This document shows, piece by piece, positions 14,704 through 59,119 of a stretch of DNA of 64,000 nt. The notes beneath the pieces are model-generated. The model did not search any database. It saw only the letters and a program-made list of their open reading frames with translations, and was not told the DNA's origin. Position numbers and translations under genes: made by a program. This DNA is from Thuidium tamariscinum. Lineage: Eukaryota; Streptophyta; Bryopsida; Hypnales; Thuidiaceae. The stretch is from the NCBI GenBank assembly GCA_947034885.2, contig OX344750.2:5518001-5582000 (forward strand), read 5' to 3'. Each line of letters opens with the position of its first letter. Position 1 is the first letter of the stretch.

Positions 14704-15979
14704 GTGGTTATCAGGTGCAGGAAACCAATCGCTGCAGGAGTAAATTATTTTGCTGCGTGGTAGAAATCACCACTTGCATGTACAGAATTTTGTGATTTCT
14801 CATCATAAATTTCTTGTCGAAATTGATCAACCTCTGATCACGGTCAAGATCCGTAAGCGAGGTACATTCAACCTTGACATTTTGGTTGATGTGATTTAGT
14901 GCAAGGTGAAGAATAGATTTGTAATTACGTTGCTATTGATTGATGGATTGTGGGATGCCAATGATCTTTCAGTTTCAGTTTAGCATTATTGGATTATTAA
15001 GCTGTCTTCAATAGGTTACCTGAGCTCTAGCGAATGCCGTCTCCTCATGCGGCGAAGCGGATGATCCATTTTTCTCTTTCATTCTTGATTACAAACCCTG
15101 CTTTGGCAAGATGGGTTTCTTGAATCAGTAATTGAACATGGCCTTTTTATGAGTCTAACTAAAATCAGGACTCTTATCACAAGCTCTTCAAGTTGATTTC
15201 TCTAAGCCTTTGGTTCACACTGCTCATCAGCACTCTTGGTGAGGGTGGGCGACTGGTTCACAAAACTTCAATGAGGCCAGGAGAGAAGCAGGCATTCTGA
15301 CCAGATGCGTGAAACTCACTAAATAACGGCCAGTTGCAGCAATTATCCATGCATGCCCCTCTTCGTTGTGTGTTTCGGTCTTTATGCTGCTGCTTCACTC
15401 ATCTTGGTAACCTCCACAGCGACACTCTGGAACTGCTTACTCTTCTGCCACATTTGCCCTGTCTTTGAGAATTTGCATACAAATTCTCCTAATTTCTGGA
15501 CAGAAGTAGGGTACAGCATTCTCTTCCACAATACTTTTAAATGCAGAAATTGCAGAAATTGTCCCCAGGTACCGGTCGGTGTTCTGAACTACGGCTACAT
15601 GGCTCAGGGTGCATGGAATTGAAATTTGTCCAACGTTCCGTGACAAATGGAATGCATCAAAGTATTGCTAATTTGAAAACTCGGATCCCGTGAGTGCCAA
15701 TAATAAGACCGAGGAAAATATCTCATTTGCACGGCAAAAGTATCTAAATCTGTTAAATACTGCTCTCGAACACCACGGCGATACAACGTATGGCAGAGGC
15801 AGTCGAAACCCAATTATTTGCACGCAGATTTAAGATATGCCCCGTCTTATCCATCGGAGCCGGCGCAACAGCACCACACTCACGCAACCCATCAGCGCCG
15901 AAATTTCAAGGTGTTTCTCAAATCAGTCTCCCGACTTTGCAGCCCAATTTCACAAGCTTTGACAACTATAGCTGCCACC
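14704..15979. other. Intergenic region between dioxygenase and CP12
   Basis: The first part is the likely 3' untranslated region of the dioxygenase; the last few hundred bases are the likely promoter and leader of CP12. Open frames around 15353-15646 on both strands show no domain or coding bias. Confidence 0.4.
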
Positions 15980-16326
15980 ATGCTCATCATGGCTGCAACA
16001 AGTGCACAGCTCGCCCCAATCTCGACCTCCAGTCGCTCCCAATTTGCCACGAGAACGACGTTACCAGCGAGGAGAATGGTGTGCACAGCCTCTCCCAGCG
16101 AAGGAGGCTCATCAGGTCTGGCCATCGACGCGGACGACAAGGTGACGGAGAAGATCGAAGATGCGCAGGAGATTTGCGCCGGCGACTCGCATTCAGAGGA
16201 TTGCAGCACGGTGTGGAACGAAGTGGAGGCCGCGAAAGCGCAGAAGAAGCAGACCAAGAGTGATCCTCTTGAGGAGTTTGTGAGGAATATCCCGGGACGG
16301 ATGAGTGCTGCACTTATACTGACTGA
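15980..16326 (+). pseudogene. CP12: CP12 chloroplast regulator with a frameshifted C-terminus
   Basis: CP12 is the small disordered plastid protein that ties GAPDH and phosphoribulokinase into an inactive complex in the dark. The start sits in an ideal context (gccaccATG, 15980). A Ser/Thr/Arg-rich transit peptide ends near residue 35. It is followed by the N-terminal module EICAGDSHSEDCSTVWNEVE (C66, C75) and the linker ending SDPLEEF at residue 100. The family then expects a C-terminal Cys pair that binds GAPDH. In this sequence that pair (CEEYPGTDECCTYTD, then TGA at 16324-16326) lies in the next frame, from 16279. The shift is one T short in a TTT run. As written, the open frame instead runs to 16414 with an unrelated 44-residue tail lacking the pair. 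It is either a real null/altered allele or a homopolymer sequencing error. No intron explains it. Confidence 0.8.
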
Positions 16327-17387
16327 GCCTCGACCCTTCTGCTGCAAACCTGTCGACAAATTCCTTAGAACTTTGCTGTCACAGCATTTCTTGATGCTGC
16401 AGCTTTGTAATTAAGTTAGCCCTGAGCCCCTGACTGTAATAGCGGTGCAGCTTTGTCGCCCATCGTAGCATTTAGGAGGTAATCAGTTTCATCAAGCAAT
16501 GTCCATACGTCGCAATCCCCCTCGGGCAGAGTGAAGCGGCTCCTATCAACATTGGTGAATGTACTCTGGCTCGTGCGCAATAAATCATTTAGCCAGGCCA
16601 TGTAACTTACACGCAAGCCTTATCACCTGGAGTTCTCAATTTTCCACTATAGCATTCCTTAAATGCGTAACGAGCGTAATTACTACTGTCAATGATACTA
16701 GAGCTACAGTAGTGGCAACTGGCAAGTGTGTAGGATGCTCTACAATGTCAATTTCAAGGTCACATCAAAGAGCTTTTGAGTGTACATTTTCACATGAGGA
16801 TAGTCTAGAATGTCATTTTTAGAGTGTCACGATAATGGGTTTGAGTTGTACAAAAAAATTCCAAGTGATCCGTCGTCTTCCTGTAGCTGAAAACGATCGT
16901 CATACTGTACATGTACTGATGTTGCAGGAGTAGAGCAATACATCACCCCAAATGTGTGGTTTGTGGGAAGTACCAGCGTAAGCATCTCTTACAGCGACCG
17001 TTCTCCAGTCACGGCAGCGACACTGACACATTAGCAGGACTGAAAGAGGCTAAGTATCAAGCCTTTCAGAACTCAGCTTCCAAGCTCATCCCGACGCTGT
17101 TCATCTTCCAGAGCTCAAGTGACCCTCTTCAATCACAAGCACAACTTCTTCCGTGAGTGAGCACGCATAGTTTTGGTTACTTGAATTATTGCAGCTAGTT
17201 TTGAGCTGAAGTCACACCAACTCCTGGAAGACTAGCCAGCCTATGATCATCAACTGATTTCCATCACTACTCCATGGTTTGTGTTCCTGACCCACTTTTT
17301 TCTTGCAACCCGAGTAATCACGAAACGACTAGAACACGACCCATTGTACTCATATTCTGAAGTCGATGGAGTGTTGGGCTATGGCAG
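16327..17387. other. Intergenic region between CP12 and phytocyanin
   Basis: The first few hundred bases are probably the CP12 3' untranslated region; an AATAAA lies near 16578. The final part is the probable phytocyanin promoter and leader. Open frames here are short and without domains. Confidence 0.4.
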
Positions 17388-20064
17388 ATGTTACCGATCT
17401 ATGGAGCTGCTGCGAGATACTGCAACATTGTTGCAGCTGTTGTGGTGGCGATGCTTGTGCAGTGGAGCCAAGCCAAGTCCGTGGACGTGGGAGGGACGGC
17501 AGGGTGGACGAGCTTCGAGTCCAATCCAGCCACTTCTCCCAATTACGGAGCCTGGGCTTCGTCGCAGAAGTTCTACATTGGCGACAGCTTGGGTTTGTTA
17601 GTGACTTTGCGTAGCTGCAGAATAGCCTTTGATTTGCTCTTGAAGTTTGGAGACTTTCTATTTCTACGTACCAGCTCATGTCATCGTTTTTGGTGCTGGT
17701 TTTGTGTGCAGTTTTCAAATTCGCAGCGGGAGAGCATAATGTTTGGTTGATGCAGTCGCGAGATGCTTACCAAAGGTGTGATTTCTCCGGGGCTTCGCTT
17801 CTCGATGAGGGAGGCTCCGGTTTCTACAGTGTAAGTCTTGCTTTCGCTCGGCGAAAATGCATTCGGAATTAGGAAGTTCTTCATTTTTCTGTGCACAACT
17901 GTGCACGAGTTTAGAGTCCCAATGCCGCATATTTTAGTGCATATATCCTGTACCACTTAATGCAAGTCTGGAGGGGAGTTACACGATATGGTACACACAG
18001 CAAAACAGTAACGTAGTAAGCGGAACATTATTCTTACGCCAGTCATAAGGCTCCCTACAGTATATGGTCAGAGACAGAATCTATTGAAGTAGTCATCCCC
18101 ATAACCTTAAGCAAAGAGAGATCAGCAAGCAAACACCTGGACCCAGTGCATTGGACCATAATGTTGTAAGGCAGGTACTATGGCATATGGAACTCTCCAA
18201 AATTGAATCATCTGACGTACCTTGATTCCAAAAAACTCATGAGCCTGACGTCCTCACAGAGAAAAAACAAGAGTGAGCTCTTTGACACCTCCCATACTGA
18301 AACTTTCCCTGCTTTATAATTTGAGGCTCCTACCTACCAGGGTCTTGAGGAAGGCCAATGTTACGAAACTGAAGGTACAGGTAACGAATTTAATTAGGAT
18401 TTTGCAAGGCGAAAAAGAAAATGCCATCTATACAGCGTCCAGTGTGGGATTACCGAAAAGCACTTAATTGATTGGGTTCCAATTTTGGGTCATGGTTTAA
18501 CGAGACAGTGTTAAACAATGTCCTTGCACTCAATTTTGTTGATCTGCACATTCCTGTCTGTTGATTTGGGAACCAACATTTGGACCTTAACATAAAGTGG
18601 GCCTGATACTTCCAATGCAGTGGAAAGCAACGCAAGCAGGAGAATACTACTTCTCCTGCGACAAAGGAGCCGAAGGTGTGGGAACGCACTGCGACTACAA
18701 CCAGAAGCTCTCTGTAGTCGTATCGAAACTTGCAACAACACCAACCTCCGCTCCCTCTCTGCCTCCAACGCCAAACCCTAATCCCCCTGCATCAGCACCA
18801 GCTCCGCAGCCAAATCCCATTCCCCCTGTTGCATCGCCAGCTTCAAACCCAAATCCTGTTCCCCCTGTTGCATCGCCAGCTCCGAAGCCAAATCCTATTC
18901 CCCCTGTTGCATCGCCAGCTCCGAAGCCAAACCCTATTCCCCCTGCCGCATCGCCGTCGCCTTTGTCCCCTCCACCCCCAGTAAGTAGTCCTGCACCCTG
19001 GATTGCCCCTGCTCGTGCTCCTACTCCCTTGCATTCCTTGCCTCCAACAAAACCTCCCATTCTCGCACCGTCTTCTTCTTCAACGCCCGTTTCAGGTCCA
19101 TTGCACTCCCCTGTTCCTGTTCTGGCTCCTGTTCTCGCTCCTGCTTCTGCAGCTCCGGCGCCAGTTCCTTCGCACTCCCCTGCACCAGTTCCTTCAGAGC
19201 CCACAATCAGCCCCGTTCCTGCACAGTCCATCTCTCCATCTCCGAGTCCTGAAGTTCCCGCACCACCTCCTTCGTCACCCGTTTCGAGTCCTCCCAGTTC
19301 TGCTCTTCCTAATGCGCCAGGCGGTGAACCAACAACAGCTCCCGTTTCTCCTTCACAGGTATGGAATTCAGAGTCTCTTTTTGATGCTGCAATCACATGA
19401 AAGCAAACATCAACTTGGAACTTCATATGCTAAATAAATGGTAACTAAATCACCAGCTAAGATCATGAAGAATGAACTGCAAGTAGAGAGTAGAATTTAA
19501 GGAATCGATTCAAAAAGCATTCAAACTCTTTACTTAGCAAATAACCCAGAGTTCTAACCCAGGTGCCTCAACATGGACATTTCCTCTTTCTTAGGAGCGC
19601 TGGAGGCACACCCTCATTTGTTTTGTACTCAATGAATGCAACCCAATTTGCACTTTCTCATGTTTGCTGCTATTTTCAATTAGTTGCTAGTCTAGATTCA
19701 GTGTTTGCATGTGGTATGCTCGGGCTTAAGGTGGGCTCATATCACTACCTCAACAGGTTGTGATTCAGTGTGTCACGCACCGGTTACATGTATCAAATGC
19801 AATGCTGAATCCAGATCACAGCGAACTGTGAACTGCAATCTCATGTTGCAATCTTGTGTTGAAGTAGTAGCCAGCGAAAGACTCATTGTTTCATGCGATG
19901 TGGATTTCATGAAAGTACTGACCGTTTTGCATGGATGTGAGTGCTCATTGGTGCCATGGTGTTTGTGCTGCTGGGATGTGCAGAACGGCGGGATGTTGCT
20001 GAGTGCGCAATCGCCGTCGTCCTTGCTCCCTTTTGTAGGCCTTCTACTTGTGCTTCTTTGGTGA
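17388..20064 (+). CDS. GPI-anchored phytocyanin (stellacyanin-like, arabinogalactan-type stalk)
   Basis: Exons are 17388-17592, 17712-17830, 18621-19358 and 19984-20064 (380 residues, GT-AG throughout; phases 1, 0, 0). A signal peptide (to about residue 29, ending QAKS) is followed by a plastocyanin-like copper domain. Candidate type-1 copper ligands are His in AGEHNVW, Cys in YYFSC, His in GTHC and the axial Gln in NQKL, so it is of the stellacyanin (Gln) type rather than Met type. A Pro/Ala/Ser stalk of about 220 residues follows, with repeated NPIPPVASPAP units, a typical substrate for prolyl hydroxylation and arabinogalactan addition. The last exon encodes a GPI signal (NGG, then hydrophobic SLLPFVGLLLVLLW). 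It is predicted to sit on the outer plasma-membrane face. The Cys-to-His spacing is nine residues, longer than the usual four. Confidence 0.88.
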
Positions 20065-20247
20065 CAGAATTCTCAAGACGATTTGAGATTTTGAAAACGG
20101 TTCATGTACAATTGTAAGGCAATGTCGAATTCTATGCTACCTTTTGTAGATCTTCTACTTGTGCTTCTTTGGTGACGAAATTCTCAAGACGATTTGAGAT
20201 TTTGAAAACGGTTCATGTACAATTGTAAGGCTATGTCGAATTCTATG
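20024..20247 (+). repeat. 111-bp tandem duplication across the phytocyanin stop codon
   Basis: The unit 20024-20134 is repeated almost exactly at 20135-20245. It contains the last dozen codons, the TGA and the start of the 3' untranslated region. The second copy (CCTTTTGTAGATCTTCTACT) therefore carries a silent duplicate of the GPI-tail coding end downstream of the real stop. Confidence 0.85.
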
Positions 20248-20595: not shown

Positions 20596-23500
20596 TCAAC
20601 GTATCCCAGCTACTCCAGCCATGACTAAAATAGCACCACCCTGTAAGTAGCAGCGCCCTGCCTCCTCATCAACACGAACAAGAAACTTGCCTCCCCGTTG
20701 TGATGCCTGCTCAAGGAAATTGTCAAACACATGTCACTTACCCACAAATCTTGCACAAAAATAAACAATTTTTAGTACGTACTGCATGCTACACTATTTT
20801 GTAGAACTCCGAAAAACTAGGAACACCATGACTTACGGCAGAGGCACCCAATGGCGCACCTGCACCCAATGCCGTCCATTTCTAAGTCAGTCATTCATTC
20901 TAGAACAGAAATGTAGCGGGATTGTAGACTGCTTATTGTTTTAGGTCAAAAGAAATAAGCCATGTACTGCCTACCTACATTTATAGCCTGAAATGATTGT
21001 GTGCTGTAGAAACGGACGGCATTGGGTACAGGTGCGCCATTGGGTGCCTCTCCCTTAGATTATCCATTCATGAGAAACTTCTAGATGGTTGTTCCAAGGA
21101 ACACTGAATTTAACAAAAAAAAATTATCATTCATTTGCTCTATGATACACTATTCTGGTGTTACGTTGAACAAATAAACAGTGTAGCTATGCCCTCAAAT
21201 CAAGGAACACAGTTATTTATTGAAGCCAGACTTGTTGGTTAAGTTTACCAACTGTCCCTCAAGCACTACTTTCCAATATGCGAATCTCCTTAAAAAACAG
21301 AAACAGATAACTCTCGTGCCGGGCCACGCATGAATCCACGTACACAGAATCTTAAAGGGCTTTGGTGCCGTTTGCTTCAGAATCACCAAACAAAGTATCG
21401 CATAAAGGGAAAGGACTCACTTGATAAGCATTCAACTCAGTTTTGCCCAATTTAGATGCCCAGTATGGGCCCAACGTGCAATGGGCACTTCCGGTAGCTG
21501 GATCCTGACGGACACAATTCAACTATTGTCAATTTTGAGAAATGACATTGCATACTGTTACCATGAGATCCACCGCTAGGAGAACCTATTTTTGTATTAG
21601 CTTACATTGCTGAAACTCCTGATCCGTGGACTGTTGAACATGCAGTTTCATGCGCTCGCCAACTTCGGTATAACAATTAAAATATCGGCAGTATGACAAC
21701 CAAACACACAGAGAAGTAGTACCTCTTTGACTCCCACATTAGGGCCGAAGAAGCGCGATATGAAGTCATACTCGCTACCTGCAGCTCCAGGGGCGGTGAC
21801 AATTACACCTAGACCAGGTAGGTCTAACATAATTTCAAATTTGGGGTTAATGTTCTCCACATCCTCACTACTCTGCACCTCCACCTGCAGGGGGAAAAAA
21901 CACAAGTTGGTTGGTCACTTCTGTTGCAGTGAAAAAAACAAAGGTTGAGACTTAGGACAATAATGAAGGGCAGGATTCGGCACCAAACGAGATACAAGCG
22001 AGTGCAGAAGTCATACCAGGTAATAATTTAAGCTGCTTATTCCCGCCCATTTGACCTCGACTCCACCTAGAGCCTCCGAAAGAAGACTAGCGTCGTCACA
22101 GGCAATAGGCGGTGCCAAGGGAAAATCCAGCTGGACCACACCCTTGTCAGAGGGTTTTCTTCTCTCAGAAGCCGGTTTTTCTTCTTTTTCTTCGTCAGGA
22201 TCTTCCTTGTACTCAACATAACCAGAAACTTTACGGGCTGTCAAGACACCCGATCTTGTATGAAAAATTGCAGTATCTCCTTCCACTATCCCAGATGAGA
22301 ATAACAAATGTGCAGATGCTATCGTTGCATGTCCACAGAGGTCAACCTGCAGAAATCAACTTCACTACGCTCATGTAGGGCACAACATCACATTGTCAAC
22401 AAAATGCACAGTACACAAGCTAAAATACCGGGTAACGAAGGCCATGGCAACCGGAAATCAGAGGTTGCACTCAAATTTTCAAAATGAGATTTTGTACTCA
22501 ATCCCCCAAAACATATTTTAAGTAATATAGTGATGGGAAGCCACTGAAAATGCACTTTAAATGAGCTATAATACCGTACGTCTCAAATATTGAGATCACA
22601 ATCCTCAAGCAATCAAAGGTGCACAGCAAAAATGACAGCAGGCTACACATAGAGAAAATAGACTGTTTAGTTTTTTGAGGATTCTTGCTCATTTTTGGGT
22701 CAAATCATGCAAATGATAGCTTGTTGGAAAGCACTGAACGCCTTCTAGCAAGCAATTACTATGATCTGATTTTTCAGTATTGAAGGCACACCAACCGATT
22801 GAAGGTTGCTGGCCAGGGTTTCAAACGATGTCAAATACATGGCTTTTCGTCATAAGTAACACTTTAAATTAACGTGCAATATAAACCTCAATGTGCAGCT
22901 ATGAAGGTTTGTCCTTGTCTGTTCAACTAAAAAGGACGGCAAACTGGTAGTAATTTCAACATCTGAAAAAGCAGAAAAGAACGAGGGGTGTACCTCATCT
23001 GTGGGAGTGAACCAGCGCAGATTGAACTCGTTTTCCTCACGCAGTGGGGCGTAGTTTTTGGTAGCTTTCAAACTTGTGCCACTTTCATCCACTTGCACAA
23101 GACCTTTACCCTTCTTTCCTTTGCCACTCCGCGCAGTGGTTCTCCTCACCAGGTATGCAGTCTCAGACAGATTGAACTCACGTGCCAGCAGTTGCAGCCA
23201 TTTGTCATCCCTGTCCTCGGGCAAGACCACTACAGCTGCTGGATTGCCACTATAAGCTCTATCTGTGAATGCATCAATCTGTCAATTCATCAAAATTTTA
23301 GGTCTCCTTGAATTTGAGTGCATAGTAGTTCGTCAGTCGGATTCCTTCTCAATAAAAAGCCCCAATACAACCGTAAACATGTGCCGATTATCACGAAACT
23401 TCAGAGCCACTTCAAATATTTTCGACTATTCTCTAGTCCAAGTTCCAAGAATGAGAATGAACAGTAGCCAATTATGTGCCTCTCAATGCGGCTTGCTGAA

Positions 23501-46680: not shown

Positions 46681-49600
46681 ATGACAAAGAGGGACGGCCA
46701 TGACCCCTCGGATTACTACCCCCATTCCAGCATGGCCACATTGAAAGTGGCCGCCACTGTCATAACAATCCTCTGCATCGCCTCCGCAGCTGCAGCTCAA
46801 GACTTGGCCGCCGACGCGGGAGCTCTGATCACATTTCGAACCGCTTTCGACCCACGCGGTAAGAAACTGAAGTGGGCGAATGCGACTTCGCCGTGCACTT
46901 GGAATGGCGTGGTGTGCTCCAGTAATCGCGTCACGCAAATCCGATTACCTGGCGTTGGACTCACGGGCGTCATCCCCGTCAACAGCTTGAGCTTGCTGTC
47001 GGAGCTTCGGGTTGTGAGTTTGCGTAACAACAAGTTGACGGGCGCTTTCCCTGGTGAATTAGGTCAGTGCAGCCATGTGCATGCATTGTACCTCGGAGGA
47101 AACCAGTTCTATGGTCCCGTGCCCAATCTTACTGGATTCTGGCCGCGACTCACGCACTTCAGCATGGAATACAACAGGTAATGTAAAGTCTCCCTCCACC
47201 ATGCAGTAAGAGAGAGACTTTGCATACAACAACCTAGAAACTCGTGTCATTTGAAATCTTTGCACAATTATTCTATGTTAAGCTAAAAATCAATTGTAAA
47301 AAACGAAATGTCAATGGGTTTCGTGGATACACACTTCACACAAACCAAAGCACCTGTATGATTCATAAAGCATCTAATGTACTATATGGTTAATGGAGAC
47401 TCTACTTTAGGGCAGCTCAAGCTCATTTCCTTCATGGTGATATGATGCACCCCTCTACATGAAAAATGAAATTTGTATGCTGTTTCAATTGAGTCCCAAT
47501 TCCTGAATATCCTCAACTTCAAGTGAACACTCTACCTTTACGAGCCACAGAATTCGGAAGGTGTCGTCCGACGTTGTCATTAGGTTTAAGACTGAATTTG
47601 CCAGTTGCAAGAATTCACGCACTCGTGGTGTTCAATTCCTGTCCACAGGTTCAAATTTGTCTGCTGCATCATTTGAGTCCAAATGCCTGACTACTATTCA
47701 CTTCAATTAAACACTCCATTTACGCGATTATGATTGTGTTGTTGTACGATGTTGCCATTAGGTCAGGTATTGAATTTTGCAGTTGCAACAAGCTCATGTA
47801 CTTGTGGTGTCCCGGCTTGCAGGTTCAATGGGACCATTCCAGATTCAATAGGCCTATTCTCGCACCTCTACTTGCTGAACCTCCGCAACAACTCGTTCTC
47901 CGGAAGCATTCCTCCTTTCAATTTAGTGAACCTGACAATCTTCGACGTCGCCAACAACAACTTGTCAGGGACTGTACCGTCCACGCTCACCAGATTCGGG
48001 CCAACTCCATTCCTCGGCAACCCAGGTTTGTGCGGGTATCCCTTACCATCCATCTGCACATCACCCAGTCCAAGCCCAATTGCACCAGGACCAGCCGAAG
48101 CTCCAGGAAAATCAAGGAAATTGCTCTCAGCTGCGGCCATCACGGCCATCATAGCGGGCGGCGTGGCATTGCTAATCCTGTTCACAATCGGGCTCTTCCT
48201 CTGTTGTTGGAAACGAGTGAAGCGCTGGACAAGTGCACGAAGAGGGACTGGGGCTGCAACAGCAGCAGCAGCAGCAGGGCGTGAGAAGGGGAAGGGAGTT
48301 GCGGAGGAGCATGGCGAAGAATACTCGAGCTCGCTGCCAGGAGAGCTGGAGCGCAACAAGCTGGTGTTCTTTGAAGGGAAGCGATACTCGTTTGATTTGG
48401 AGGATCTGTTGCGAGCTTCCGCGGAGGTGCTGGGGAAAGGGAGCGTGGGCACGGCGTATAAGGCTGTGTTGGAAGATGGGACTGTGCTAGCGGTGAAGAG
48501 GTTGAAGGATGTGACGACCGGAAGAAAAGATTTCGAAGCACAGATTGATGTGGTGGGGAAGATGCAGCATCGGAACTTGGTGCCGTTGAGAGCGTACTAC
48601 TTTTCGAAGGATGAGAAGCTGCTCGTGTATGAGTACATGCCTGTGGGCAGCCTTGCTACACTCCTGCACGGTAACCCTAAACCACCTCATGCTCTTGCCA
48701 AATTTTTGAGAACGGGGGAACAAGGCAAACTGCGATGCACTCTGTTTCCCTTGCTGTGTCCCCGATTTGGTTTCTGAGCTCTTGTGAGTGAGTGTTTAGC
48801 AAAGACTAAGGATTTGTGGTTTTATACTGACGAACTCAATCGATCACGTTGTGAAAACTGTAATTCAAATGAATTGGAGTCAAATCTTATATCACCAGAA
48901 TCAATTAAGAGCATTGCATGTGTTGGTCTACTAAGGCAATAAAATTGAAGAAAAAAAAGTATAAATTCTACCAAATTTCAGCAAAAATTCCAGATCTGGG
49001 GTAACACGGCAAACTGAACAATCTCCCTTCCAGTGTCTTCAATTTGGTCTCTGAGCTTTTGTGAATGGATGTTAGGCGAAGACTAAGGATTCGTGACTTT
49101 AGAATTTAACAATTCAACTGCTCACGTTCTGAAACCTTTACTTCAAATGGATTGGGGTCAAATTTTATCTCAACAGAATCGATGAAGAGTGTTGCACGTG
49201 TTGGTCAATAAGGCAATAGATTAAAGAAAGGAACTAACTCCACAGATGACCTACTTGAAATTAGTAGAAACACGAACATGGGGTCCAAATTTGGGATTCC
49301 TGGCTCTTCAGGGGTTTAAGAGAATTGGCTTTGGTTTTGGCAGGCAACAGAGGTACCAACCGAACTCCGCTAGATTGGGTAAGCAGGGTGAGAATTGCGC
49401 TTGGCGTTGCAAGAGGACTTGCGTATCTGCACGCACAAGGAGGAGGACCCCGATTCGTGCACGGGAATATCAAGTCTTCCAACGTGCTTCTCTACCGAGA
49501 CCTGGAAGCTTGTATTTCAGACTTCGGACTGACGCAGTTGCTGAATACCGGAACAGCTGCGTCCCGGGTGGTCGGGTACCGAGCGCCTGAGATCACCGAG

Positions 49601-50545
49601 ACACGAAAAGTGACACAAAAGTCCGATGTCTACAGCTTCGGAGTGGTACGTCTCGTCTCCAGACTTATCTTGTCTTAAAATTACACCATTTATTCTATTG
49701 CTTGTATGATATCCTAATCTGCTCATTCCATACACCTACGGACTAGCGTATTGCTCATTCAAACATGTATCAACTTACTGTCTCTCTACTTGGATAAGAT
49801 TCAGACACCAGACAGCAGAAAGAAGCAAAAAAACTCCCAATTCATTGGTTGACTTACAATTCACTCAACTCCTTCAACCTTTATCCTTTCTTTAAACGAT
49901 CGATGGTAGTTCCAATGGCTAAAACGTGTACAACTTACACTCAGAAACTTCTATTTTCTCTCTTGCAACGATCAATGGTGGTTCCAAGGTTTTACCGTGT
50001 ACACAGTTACTGTAAAGCACAATAAACCCTAAACCCTAACCCTATTTAGTTGGCACATAAAACCATGGATGACACTATTTAACAGTAGCATACATGATCC
50101 CCCTGACTGCAATGCTTGGTTTCTGTAGCTGTTGCTGGAGCTCCTGACAGGAAAGGCCCCCAGCCAAGTGTCAATAAACGACGAAGGCATCGACCTCCCC
50201 CAGTGGGTGCAATCCGTGGTCCGCGAGGAATGGACAGCCGAAGTGTTCGACTTGGAGCTCATGCGCTACGCGAACATCGAAGAGGAGATGGTGTCCATGT
50301 TGCAACTGGCCATGCAATGCGTGGACGCGGCTCCTGAGCGGCGCCCAAGCATGAGCGACTTGCTGCCGCTGCTGGAGGATGTGCACCCGTTCTCCTCCGA
50401 CACGGGGGACGAAGGAGCGTCACGACAAGAGTCGTCCGAGGACAAGTCCAAGAGCGAAGAGAAGGAGAAGGAGTCTTCTTTGGAAACCACGCCGTCGGCG
50501 CCTTCCGAGGAGTCTCGCAACCCGTCGGAGGGTGCTGTGCCTTAG
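46681..50545 (+). CDS. LRR receptor-like (pseudo)kinase 1, LRR-III type
   Basis: Exons are 46681-47177, 47823-48670, 49344-49645 and 50129-50545 (687 residues; GT-AG; phases 2, 1, 0). The start is the MTKR methionine, shared with the downstream paralogue; an alternative is the Met before the signal peptide ([14 protein letters not shown]). The order is signal peptide, LRR N-terminal cap ([17 protein letters not shown]), about five leucine-rich repeats, a Pro/Ser linker, a membrane span ([20 protein letters not shown]), and a juxtamembrane Ala/Lys segment, then a kinase domain. The glycine loop ([13 protein letters not shown]) and lysine K391 are intact. The HRD catalytic loop is HGN (488-490), lacking the catalytic Asp, while D508-F-G remains. 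This matches the atypical plant LRR-III kinases (RKL1/RLK902/At2g26730 class), thought to signal by scaffolding at the plasma membrane. The tail is Glu/Ser/Lys-rich. Confidence 0.88.
47460..47830 (+). repeat. ~183-bp tandem duplication in intron 1 reaching the splice acceptor
   Basis: Two diverged units (about 47460-47645 and 47646-47830) share 'tttgtctgctgcatcatttgag'-type starts, 'cacttcaattaaacactcc', 'tgttgccattagg' and 'cttgtggtgt'. Each ends in an acceptor-like CAG|GTTCAA. The second is the real exon-2 junction. Confidence 0.65.
48718..49230 (+). repeat. ~278-bp tandem duplication in intron 2 of receptor kinase 1
   Basis: 'tctgagctcttgtgagtgag' (48772) and 'tctgagcttttgtgaatgga' (49050) start matching blocks that continue through 'gactaaggatt' and 'ggagtcaaatcttatatca/ggggtcaaattttatctca' to 'ggcaata'. 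It is entirely intronic. Confidence 0.7.
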
Positions 50546-56228: not shown

Positions 56229-59119
56229 ATGACTAAAAGAGAGCATGAATCAGAGTCGATCATGGTCAAGATGGCATCCACCTTGATCATGGTGATCCTC
56301 CTCGGTGGGGTGTCAGTGTTAGGCCAGGACCTCGCATCGGACACCCGAGCACTGCTCGCATTCAGCAGTCTGCATGACCCGAATGGATTGAAGCTAAATT
56401 GGACCAACGTCACCTCGACGTGCAGCTGGCTTGGCATCACTTGTGGTAACAATAGGGTTACGGAGCTTCGGCTGCCAGGGAAAGGACTCAGGGGGATCAT
56501 CCCTCCAGGGAGTTTGAGCAATGTTACTGAACTTCAGGTCGTCAGCTTGCGCGGCAACACGTTGACCGGGGATTTCCCCGACGAGTTTGGAGGTTGCAAA
56601 AACTTGCAGTACCTGTATCTGGCTGGCAATGACTTCTACGGATCTCTACCCAATCTTTCTGCGCTCTGGCCTGGACTAACTAGTTTGAGCTTGGATTACA
56701 ACGGGTCAGTGCTTGCCATTATATCGTTTCATGTTGGCGATGGTCGTTCCAGGACCACACAAACTTTGCATATGTGACATTGGGAATTGGAGAGACAAAA
56801 ACACTGGTTCTATAAGTTTTGCAATGTTCTAATTTCTCGTTGGCGTGATTTCCCAGTTAGGAACCACTGGACTGACTGGCATTTTAAGGAACTGTCTGGT
56901 AGTTTGAATTGGAGAACTCAATGTAAATTTTAGAATTCATGCTATTTTTTGGTGCAGATCTAGACTCTTTACATTACAGATTTGGTATGCTAGTCAGTTT
57001 ACCAGCCTTTTCTTCAGTGATTAACGTGTGTGTGTTATTTGCCACACGTGTTTGTCAACAGCTTGAATGGGACCCTTCCGGAGTCACTGCAGCTTCTCCC
57101 TCAGCTGACGTTGCTGACCCTCCGCAACAACTCGTTTTCTGGTAGCCTTCCACCGTTGGATCTGGCAAACTTGACGGTTTTCGATGTCGCCTACAACAAT
57201 TTGTCTGGAACCATTCCTGCAACTTTCTCGAGATTTGCTGCGGACTCGTTCGCTGGCAATCCTGGCTTGTGTGGTGCTCCTCTTGGAGCTCCATGCTCTT
57301 CCTCAACAGCACCCTTATCCTCATCTCCAAAACACCATGGTCTATCTAAAGGCGCAATTGCGGGTATTGTAGTGGGAGGTGTGGCATGTCTGGTCCTCGT
57401 TGTCGTAGCTTTCATCTGTCTCTGTGCAAGAGAGGACGAGAGTGAGGATTCACCATCCCCTTCAGCGCCTGGTGAGAGAACTGGTGATGTTGTGGGAGTG
57501 ACTCGTGATAAGAACCGAGAGCGGCGAGCAATAGAGCAATATGGAGAAGAGTATGCCATTGCAGTTGCAGGGGAGCCGGCAAGCGCCAGCAAGTTGGTGT
57601 CGTTCTCCCTGGTTTCTTTTGATCTTGAGGACTTGCTCCGAGCTTCGGCGGAGATCCTGGGCAAGGGCAGTGTGGGCACTGCGTACAAGGCGATCTTGGA
57701 GGATGGGACCGTCATGGCTGTGAAGAGGTTGAAGGATGTGACGACGGGCAAGAAGGAGTTTGAGGCTCTGATCCAGGCCGTGGGGAAGCTGCAGCACCGG
57801 AATGTGGTGCCTGTGCGCGCGTATTACTATTCCAAGGACGAAAAGCTTCTGGTCTCTGATTTCATGCCCATGGGCAGTCTCGCTGCAATTCTGCATGGTA
57901 AGCAATTATCAAGAGACTGCTTTTACTACATAATTGTTTTTAGACCTAAGATTTTTCGGTTCTTGGTTGACTGAAGGGGAGGAGGCCATCTGCATCAACG
58001 CAAGCTACATATATGGGTGAAATGAGAAAGTTTTAGTGGGTTCTTACGCACAATGCTTGTTGCAACTAAAATATTGCGCCCAAGTTTCTTACCAGAAATA
58101 AGCTACCTCTGCAGTGCTGCTACACTGTGAATTAAGCTACAGAGCCTCTTGTAGCTTCATCACAAAAGGACCGAGTCTTTTGTTTCATCCTATTTTACGC
58201 TGTAATGGAATCTTTTTCAGGAGGTGCCGAGTAACAGGGAGTCTTGTGTCTTTGTAGGCAATCGAGGACCCAATCGCATCCCTGTGGATTGGCTGGCTAG
58301 AGTAAGGATTGTAATTGGCGCTGCCAAGGGTCTTGCGTATCTGCATGCACAAGGCGGACCAAATTTTGTGCACGGGAACATCAAGTCATCCAACGTTCTG
58401 CTCAATAGAGACCGAGAAGCTTGCGTTTCTGATTTTGGACTTTCTCCTCTGGTGGTCTCGTCCAATTCTGCTTCAAAAGTTGTTGGCTACCGAGCCCCAG
58501 AAGTCACCGTAACTCGCAAACTGACTCAGAAATCGGATGTCTATAGCTTTGGAGTGGTACAAGATTTACCCTTCGGTCTCTTCATTTATGTTTCGTATAT
58601 TCTGAGAATGTTTCAAATTTATTCTCTTGATTTGCGTTTTGACTCTGTTTGTTTTGGTACAAGGACTACCTTATATTCTTATTGCAAGAACATTGTGATA
58701 ACTTGCTTGATTTATGGTTCTTTTATTTTTTGTAGCTACTGCTGGAGATTCTAACTGGCAAGGCACCTATCCAAGAATCTCCCAACAGCGAAGCGATTGA
58801 TTTGCCACGTTGGGTTCAGTCCACTGTTCGGGAAGAATGGACAGCCGAAGTGTTCGACTTGGAGCTGATGCGCTACCAGAACATCGAAGGGGAAATGGTA
58901 TCTATGCTGCAGGTTGCAATGCAGTGTGTGGAATCTGTTCCTGAGAAGCGGCCCAAGATGAGCACTGTGTTATCTCTGCTTGAGGATGTGCACCCATTCT
59001 TTATCGTGAACGGTGCACCTCCAGCTCGGCAATCCGACAGCGCCTCGGAGGAGACAATTAGGGACACTGAGGGAGACTCCTCTCTAAGGGCTGCTCCTTC
59101 GGTCTCTCGCTCTCTTTGA
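56229..59119 (+). CDS. LRR receptor-like (pseudo)kinase 2, LRR-III type, tandem paralogue
   Basis: Exons are 56229-56704, 57062-57897, 58258-58556 and 58736-59119 (664 residues). The intron positions and phases (2, 1, 0) are identical to those of the gene at 46681, so the pair arose by tandem duplication. The order is signal peptide ([18 protein letters not shown]), LRR cap with CSWLGITC, about five leucine-rich repeats, a membrane span ([20 protein letters not shown]), then kinase. The loop [13 protein letters not shown] and K380 are intact. The catalytic loop is HGN at 476-478 rather than HRD, and D496-F-G is kept, so it is a probable pseudokinase. The tail is shorter and less charged than in paralogue 1. 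Its introns are compact (about 180-360 bp) compared with 480-670 bp in paralogue 1. The ligand is unknown. Confidence 0.88.

What the first reader, a model, noticed from the sequence alone, without database searches (positions are those of the whole stretch)
15980..16414. CP12 gene broken by a one-base deletion before its GAPDH-binding cysteine module
The transit peptide, N-terminal Cys pair and linker (to SDPLEEF, ending 16279) are textbook CP12. The conserved C-terminal module, CEEYPGTDECCTYTD followed by TGA, is intact but sits in the neighbouring frame from 16279, at a TTT run where one more T would restore the reading. As written the protein gets an unrelated 44-residue tail without the redox Cys pair that CP12 uses to bind GAPDH. 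If real, this copy would be a naturally redox-crippled CP12. If not, it is an assembly error worth correcting.
Basis: partly seen in the sequence, partly recalled or inferred. Interest (0 to 1): 0.7.

Follow-up and report, generated by a model that had tools for sequence, protein, structure and literature searches.

The report
Diverged CP12 copy, reading frame broken
A plant gene for CP12, a small chloroplast switch protein, reads out of frame just before its enzyme-binding end; the copy has also lost other conserved residues, so it is most likely a failing duplicate, although a one-base sequencing error cannot be ruled out.

Summary
The frame break is in the sequence. An open frame from 15980 (or 15989) encodes a transit-peptide-like leader, a CP12 N-half and SDPLEEF to base 16279, then 44 residues unlike CP12 to a TAA at 16412-16414. 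The CP12 C-terminal module, CEEYPGTDECCTYTD plus TGA, lies at 16279-16326 in the neighbouring frame; it scores best of 58,328 stop-free 15-residue windows in six frames (16.8 bits, next 3.4). The frames share base 16279, so no intron can keep both halves whole. 'Textbook CP12' is wrong. The AWD_VEE core reads VWN_VEA, the linker is seven residues shorter than in Arabidopsis CP12-2, and the module has lost the conserved Asn, Arg and penultimate acidic residue. Of 22 near-invariant positions 10 are changed; 80 cyanobacterial CP12s have at most 3. Overall identity to Arabidopsis CP12-2 is ordinary (32 of 63). Read through, it scores 51.4 Pfam bits against 92-108 for three solved CP12s. Best reading: a paralogue losing CP12 motifs whose frame was truly and recently lost (0.5). 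Rival: a base-calling error in a diverged, open paralogue (0.4). The own-genome search did not complete in 14 tries; no reads, transcripts or plant relatives were at hand.

The parts
15980..16093 (+). Leader with two in-frame ATGs (15980 and 15989): MLIMAATSAQLAPISTSSRSQFATRTTLPARRMVCTAS, Ser/Thr/Arg-rich and transit-peptide-like
   Evidence: sequence and translation; chloroplast targeting is inferred, no predictor was run
16133..16279 (+). CP12 N-half: N-terminal Cys pair CAGDSHSEDC, degraded core VWN_VEA (usual AWD_VEE), short linker, SDPLEEF
   Evidence: Pfam PF02672 29.2 bits, residues 52-100; three CP12 chains of the PDB at E 6e-06 to 1e-05; rank 1 in the profile scan for the 24-residue N-half at 16163-16234
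16277..16279 (+). TTT where the CP12 frame breaks; the last T is also the first base of the Cys codon of the shifted module
   Evidence: sequence
16279..16326 (+). CP12 C-terminal module CEEYPGTDECCTYTD and TGA in the neighbouring frame; Cys spacing CxxxPxxxxC kept, conserved N, E, R and penultimate acidic residue replaced
   Evidence: rank 1 of 58,328 windows; Pfam 29.2 bits without it, 51.4 with it; compared with CP12 and GAPDH-B tails
16280..16414 (+). 44-residue tail VRNIPGRMSAALILTEPRPFCCKPVDKF...LQLCN of the printed frame and TAA; not CP12-like
   Evidence: first 15 residues score -25.7 on the C-module profile; Pfam runs five residues into it
16579..16584 (+). AATAAA, possible polyadenylation signal; no A or T run of 8 or more in 15001-17500, so no sign of a processed retrocopy

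Best explanation
A diverged paralogue of the chloroplast redox switch CP12, in a plant nuclear genome, that had lost constraint on its PRK-related core and its GAPDH-binding tail and then suffered a real one-base frame loss before the C-terminal module. Shown: the frame break, the absence of the CxxxPxxxxC tail from the reading frame, and changes at many conserved positions. Inferred: that the base is truly absent, that another CP12 copy carries the function, and that any protein made would be unable to dock GAPDH and hence to form the dark GAPDH-CP12-PRK complex.
For: 10 of 22 near-invariant positions are changed or deleted; on the same pairwise footing the 80 cyanobacterial CP12s have 0 (68), 1 (6), 2 (5) or 3 (1). 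In the first alignment the counts were 9 of 22 here, and 0 (76), 1 (3), 2 (2) for the 81 others. Eight of the 22 positions lie in the C-terminal module, which the fetching patterns did not cover; three of them are changed (Y56F, N60Y, R67C), of which Y56F is mild: F occurs in one of the 81 and in GAPDH-B. GAPDH-B keeps the Asn, a basic residue after the second Cys and an acidic residue at the penultimate-acidic position, which this module has lost. In Chlamydomonas the penultimate Glu of CP12 contacts an Arg of GAPDH (PMC4436894, passage); here that position is Thr. The read-through scores 51.4 Pfam bits, against 91.9, 106.8 and 107.6 for CP12 stretches from three solved structures. Eight of eight exon pieces of two related LRR-kinase genes in the window align in a single frame.
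Against: Overall identity to Arabidopsis CP12-2 is ordinary: 32 of 63 (51%), against 42-58%, median 50%, for the 80 cyanobacterial CP12s, although its alignment score is below 75 of the 80. Only one frame lesion and no premature stop before it; the module ends with TGA at the canonical length. The body has gene-like third-position GC (0.71) and CpG o/e 1.0, like the 2OG and PMEI genes (1.03, 1.11) and unlike intergenic DNA (0.25-0.27), so it is not an old pseudogene. No second copy, read or transcript was seen. The comparison set is cyanobacterial plus one Arabidopsis protein, chosen by conserved motifs and by similarity to Arabidopsis, so it understates normal variation, above all in plants.
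Confidence: 0.5

Rival explanations
1. Base-calling or assembly error: the genome has one more base near the T run, and the gene encodes an open but diverged CP12 paralogue.
For: One lesion at a short homopolymer; both halves match CP12 and together score 51.4 bits; stop codon at the canonical place; gene-like GC3 and CpG; ordinary overall identity to Arabidopsis CP12-2.
Against: A run of three or four T is an easy site for most sequencing platforms (general knowledge). No frame error was seen in the LRR-kinase pair. 60 homopolymer runs of four or more fall in 5,991 bases of ORF or exon, but those stretches were picked because they are open, so this control is weak. The protein so restored would still have changes at 10 of 22 near-invariant positions.
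Confidence: 0.4
2. The frame is bridged in the cell, by splicing or by -1 ribosomal frameshifting, so that the module is translated.
For: 52 GT-AG pairs (53-275 bases) inside 15989-16279 have a length that would put the module in frame with the start; GTGAGG at 16280 resembles a donor site.
Against: The halves share a base and lie in different frames, so no intron can keep both whole and in frame: one upstream of the N-half would put the N-half out of frame, one inside it would remove part of it. A donor at 16280 would drop the module, and no second module scores well in the window. The site has no X XXY YYZ slippery pattern (sequence; the pattern is recalled), and the RNA downstream folds no better than shuffles (z -0.12, 81 of 200 at least as good).
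Confidence: 0.03
3. A working truncated CP12 with the N-terminal Cys pair only, kept for something other than GAPDH binding.
For: Cyanobacteria have CP12 classes with only the N-terminal pair (CP12-N; PMC3906501, section 4 read). The body looks gene-like in composition.
Against: The AWD_VEE core, implicated in PRK inactivation (PMC9623430, passage), is also degraded, and the tail does not resemble CP12. In Synechocystis, CP12 without the C-terminal Cys pair resembles the deletion for glucose consumption and NAD(P)H re-oxidation and restores growth only slowly (same paper, passages).
Confidence: 0.05

Closest known systems
CP12 (Pfam PF02672; Arabidopsis CP12-2, PDB 2lj9, 3qv1, 6kez)
   Same: N-terminal Cys pair, the SDPLEE linker and, in the other frame, a CxxxPxxxxC tail of the same length; 32 of 63 aligned residues identical when read through
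   Different: core VWN_VEA instead of AWD_VEE, linker seven residues shorter, changed conserved residues in the tail, frame broken before the tail
CP12-N class of cyanobacterial CP12-like proteins (PMC3906501, section 4)
   Same: as printed, only the N-terminal Cys pair remains in frame
   Different: plant nuclear gene with a leader; the C-terminal module is still there in another frame; AWD_VEE also degraded
CP12-like tail of GAPDH-B (PDB 2pkq, 2pkr)
   Same: same kind of C-terminal module with a conserved Cys pair
   Different: GAPDH-B keeps the Asn, a basic residue after the second Cys and the acidic end

Membership tests
CP12 (canonical) | sequence match to the CP12 domain family | tested here: met
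   PF02672 29.2 bits for the N-half, 33.5 for the frame as printed, 51.4 read through; cut-off 22.7; three solved CP12s score 91.9-107.6
CP12 (canonical) | N-terminal Cys pair with seven or eight residues between (PMC9406205) | tested here: met
   CAGDSHSEDC, eight residues between
CP12 (canonical) | core AWD_VEE(L) | tested here: not met
   VWN_VEA
CP12 (canonical) | C-terminal CxxxPxxxxC pair in the protein | tested here: not met
   present in DNA at 16279-16323 but out of frame; the printed tail lacks it
CP12 (canonical) | redox-dependent binding of GAPDH and PRK | not testable with these tools
   needs protein
CP12-N class (N-terminal pair only) | N-terminal pair present, C-terminal pair absent in an expressed protein | tested here: inconclusive
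   true of the frame as printed; expression and the reality of the frame are unknown
processed pseudogene | poly(A) tract and target-site repeats | tested here: not met
   no A or T run of 8 or more in 15001-17500; one 11-bp match between the flanks (15902 and 16750), not a convincing target-site pair

The most novel reading that the evidence does not exclude
A land-plant CP12 paralogue that is expressed as an N-terminal-pair-only protein with a new 44-residue tail carrying three other cysteines, and kept for a role that does not need GAPDH docking.
Probability: 0.05. Interest if true: 0.5.

Novelty: new member of a known kind. Interest (0 to 1): 0.22.

Why it matters
If real, it is a natural CP12 copy without the GAPDH tail and with a degraded core, a small illustration of how duplicated CP12 genes fail. 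A 2014 review states that all higher-plant CP12s studied so far keep all three features (PMC3906501, section 4), so a confirmed expressed exception would be worth a note. If it is an error, the gene model of a diverged CP12 paralogue needs correction. Neither changes what is known of the Calvin cycle switch.

Tried and rejected
Intron joining the two frames: rejected because the halves share a base; the 52 GT-AG pairs cannot keep both halves whole and in frame. Programmed -1 frameshift: no slippery pattern, no structure. Replacement exon downstream: no second C-module with a good score in the window. Processed retrocopy: no poly(A) or convincing target-site repeats. Old pseudogene: CpG and GC3 are gene-like. 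RNA families at gathering score and tRNAs: none in the window. Viral and phage relatives of CP12: none found at these sensitivities (102 pattern stretches, none confirmed; no match), although reviews report CP12-like proteins in cyanophages, so these searches were weak.

Withdrawn by my own check: the window copy came out 40% identical to Arabidopsis CP12-2, below all 80 cyanobacterial CP12s. That alignment had slid SDP out of register. With one pairwise method for all it is 51%, in the middle of their range. I dropped the claim and lowered the best reading from 0.55 to 0.5 and raised the error reading from 0.35 to 0.4. The count of changed conserved positions held (9, then 10 of 22).

Literature, listings only: CP12 + Physcomitrella + GAPDH (11 papers), CP12 + pseudogene + chloroplast (11 papers), CP12 + Cys-pair terms (20 of 122 listed), (20 of 298 listed), CP12 + frameshift + phosphoribulokinase (3 papers), (3 of 4 listed; 15 of 23 listed). 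No listed title is about a broken plant CP12. Read: section 4 of PMC3906501 and section 6 of PMC9406205, with passages; passages of PMC5095126, PMC4436894 and PMC9623430; in PMC8151241 the terms asked did not occur.

The own-genome search for other CP12 copies (genome search, where own, PF02672) did not complete in 14 tries. Whether another CP12 exists in this genome is unknown here.

Full report
What is there. The + strand has an open frame with two in-frame ATGs (15980, 15989) ending at TAA 16412-16414. From 15980 it reads 144 residues: a Ser/Thr/Arg-rich leader, a CP12 N-half with the Cys pair CAGDSHSEDC, then SDPLEEF to base 16279, then 44 residues unlike CP12. The CP12 C-terminal module CEEYPGTDECCTYTD with TGA occupies 16279-16326 in the neighbouring frame. 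T16279 serves both frames.

Is it more than chance. Pfam CP12 scores the N-half 29.2 bits, the printed frame 33.5 (it runs five residues into the tail) and the read-through 51.4, cut-off 22.7. PDB matches of the read-through are three CP12 chains at E 1.5e-12 to 2.9e-12, CBS-CP12 at 4.8e-4 and a further CP12 at 0.053. With profiles from these 80 plus Arabidopsis CP12-2, the module is first of 58,328 stop-free 15-residue windows in six frames (16.8 bits, next 3.4), the N-half is first of 38,366 (15.8, next -3.2), and the first 15 residues of the real tail score -25.7; Arabidopsis scores 39.1 on the module profile.

It is not a textbook CP12. The core AWD_VEE reads VWN_VEA, the linker is seven residues shorter than in Arabidopsis CP12-2, and the module has lost the conserved Asn, the Arg after the second Cys (now another Cys) and the penultimate acidic residue (acidic in 74 of 81). 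Of 22 positions kept in at least 80 of 81 CP12s, 10 are changed or deleted here on a pairwise alignment to Arabidopsis: A25S, A26T, A27V, D29N, E33A, A36 and H40 lost, Y56F, N60Y, R67C. On the same footing the 80 cyanobacterial CP12s have 0 (68), 1 (6), 2 (5) or 3 (1). Arabidopsis CP12-2 departs at two positions in the jackknife (A25V, Q35S). Caveat: the loci were found through AAWD[EVA][VL]EE and A[SA]H[QA]R[AD][KE][KQ][QK] and were ranked by similarity to Arabidopsis, so variation is understated, most of all in those stretches. Eight near-invariant positions lie in the C-terminal module, outside the patterns; three are changed, one of them mildly (Y56F).

Overall identity is not unusual. Against Arabidopsis CP12-2 the read-through has 32 of 63 aligned residues identical (51%); the 80 cyanobacterial CP12s have 42-58%, median 50%. 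Its alignment score lies below 75 of the 80. A first figure of 40% came from a misaligned linker and is withdrawn. Against the family model the read-through is weak: 51.4 bits, where three CP12 stretches from solved structures score 91.9, 106.8 and 107.6. The GAPDH-B tail, an independent relative, keeps Asn, a basic residue and the acidic end. A review says all higher-plant CP12s studied keep both Cys pairs and AWD_VEE, and that Arabidopsis CP12-3 is only 41-48% identical to CP12-1 and CP12-2 (PMC3906501, section 4); so divergence in itself is normal in paralogues, and the loss of the motifs is what stands out.

Real or error. For a real loss: the changes at constrained sites, and no frame errors in the one pair of related genes in the window (eight of eight LRR-kinase exon pieces each align in one frame). 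For an error: a single lesion at a T run, an otherwise open frame with the stop in place, and gene-like composition. CpG o/e is 1.0 in the body, 0.71 in the short module and 0.49 after it, against 0.25-0.27 in intergenic DNA; third-position GC is 0.71 in the mature N-half and 0.53 in the 15-codon module. That composition speaks against an old pseudogene and for a recent loss or an error. ORF and exon stretches totalling 5,991 bases hold 60 runs of four or more, but they were chosen as open and so test little.

Other ways to make the full protein. No intron can keep both halves whole and in frame, since they share a base. The 52 GT-AG pairs inside the coding region would cut the N-half or put it out of frame. 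No slippery site was seen, and the downstream RNA folds no better than shuffles.

What it would do. If translated as printed, the protein would lack the CxxxPxxxxC tail that docks on GAPDH (PMC9406205, section 6) and would carry a degraded core of the kind involved in PRK inactivation (PMC9623430, passage). In Synechocystis, mutating the C-terminal Cys pair resembles the deletion for glucose consumption and NAD(P)H re-oxidation and gives slow growth, while mutating the N-terminal pair is much milder (same passages). So it should be inert in the dark complex. This is inference; no expression data were available.

What is missing. The window is plant nuclear by gene content (PMEI, 2OG oxygenase, PhzF-like, two LRR kinases, a weak phytocyanin-like match). 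The moss Physcomitrella has at least one CP12 (PMC5095126, passages), but I did not place this species.

Noticed in passing
46681-50392 and 56229-59104: Two related LRR receptor-kinase genes with matching four-piece layout, 46-78% amino-acid identity piece by piece; probably a local duplication.
   Followed up: partly
17388-19397: Phytocyanin-like gene (weak Pfam Cu_bind_like match, 18.4 bits, under the cut-off of 20.8) followed by a proline-rich frame with a 39-bp tandem repeat, 4.9 copies at 18763-18955; that both belong to one gene is a guess.
   Followed up: no
20024-20247: 111-bp tandem duplicate, two copies, 94% matches.
   Followed up: no
22014-22355 and 22853-23281: Two PhzC-PhzF family pieces on the minus strand, probably exons of one gene.
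   Followed up: no
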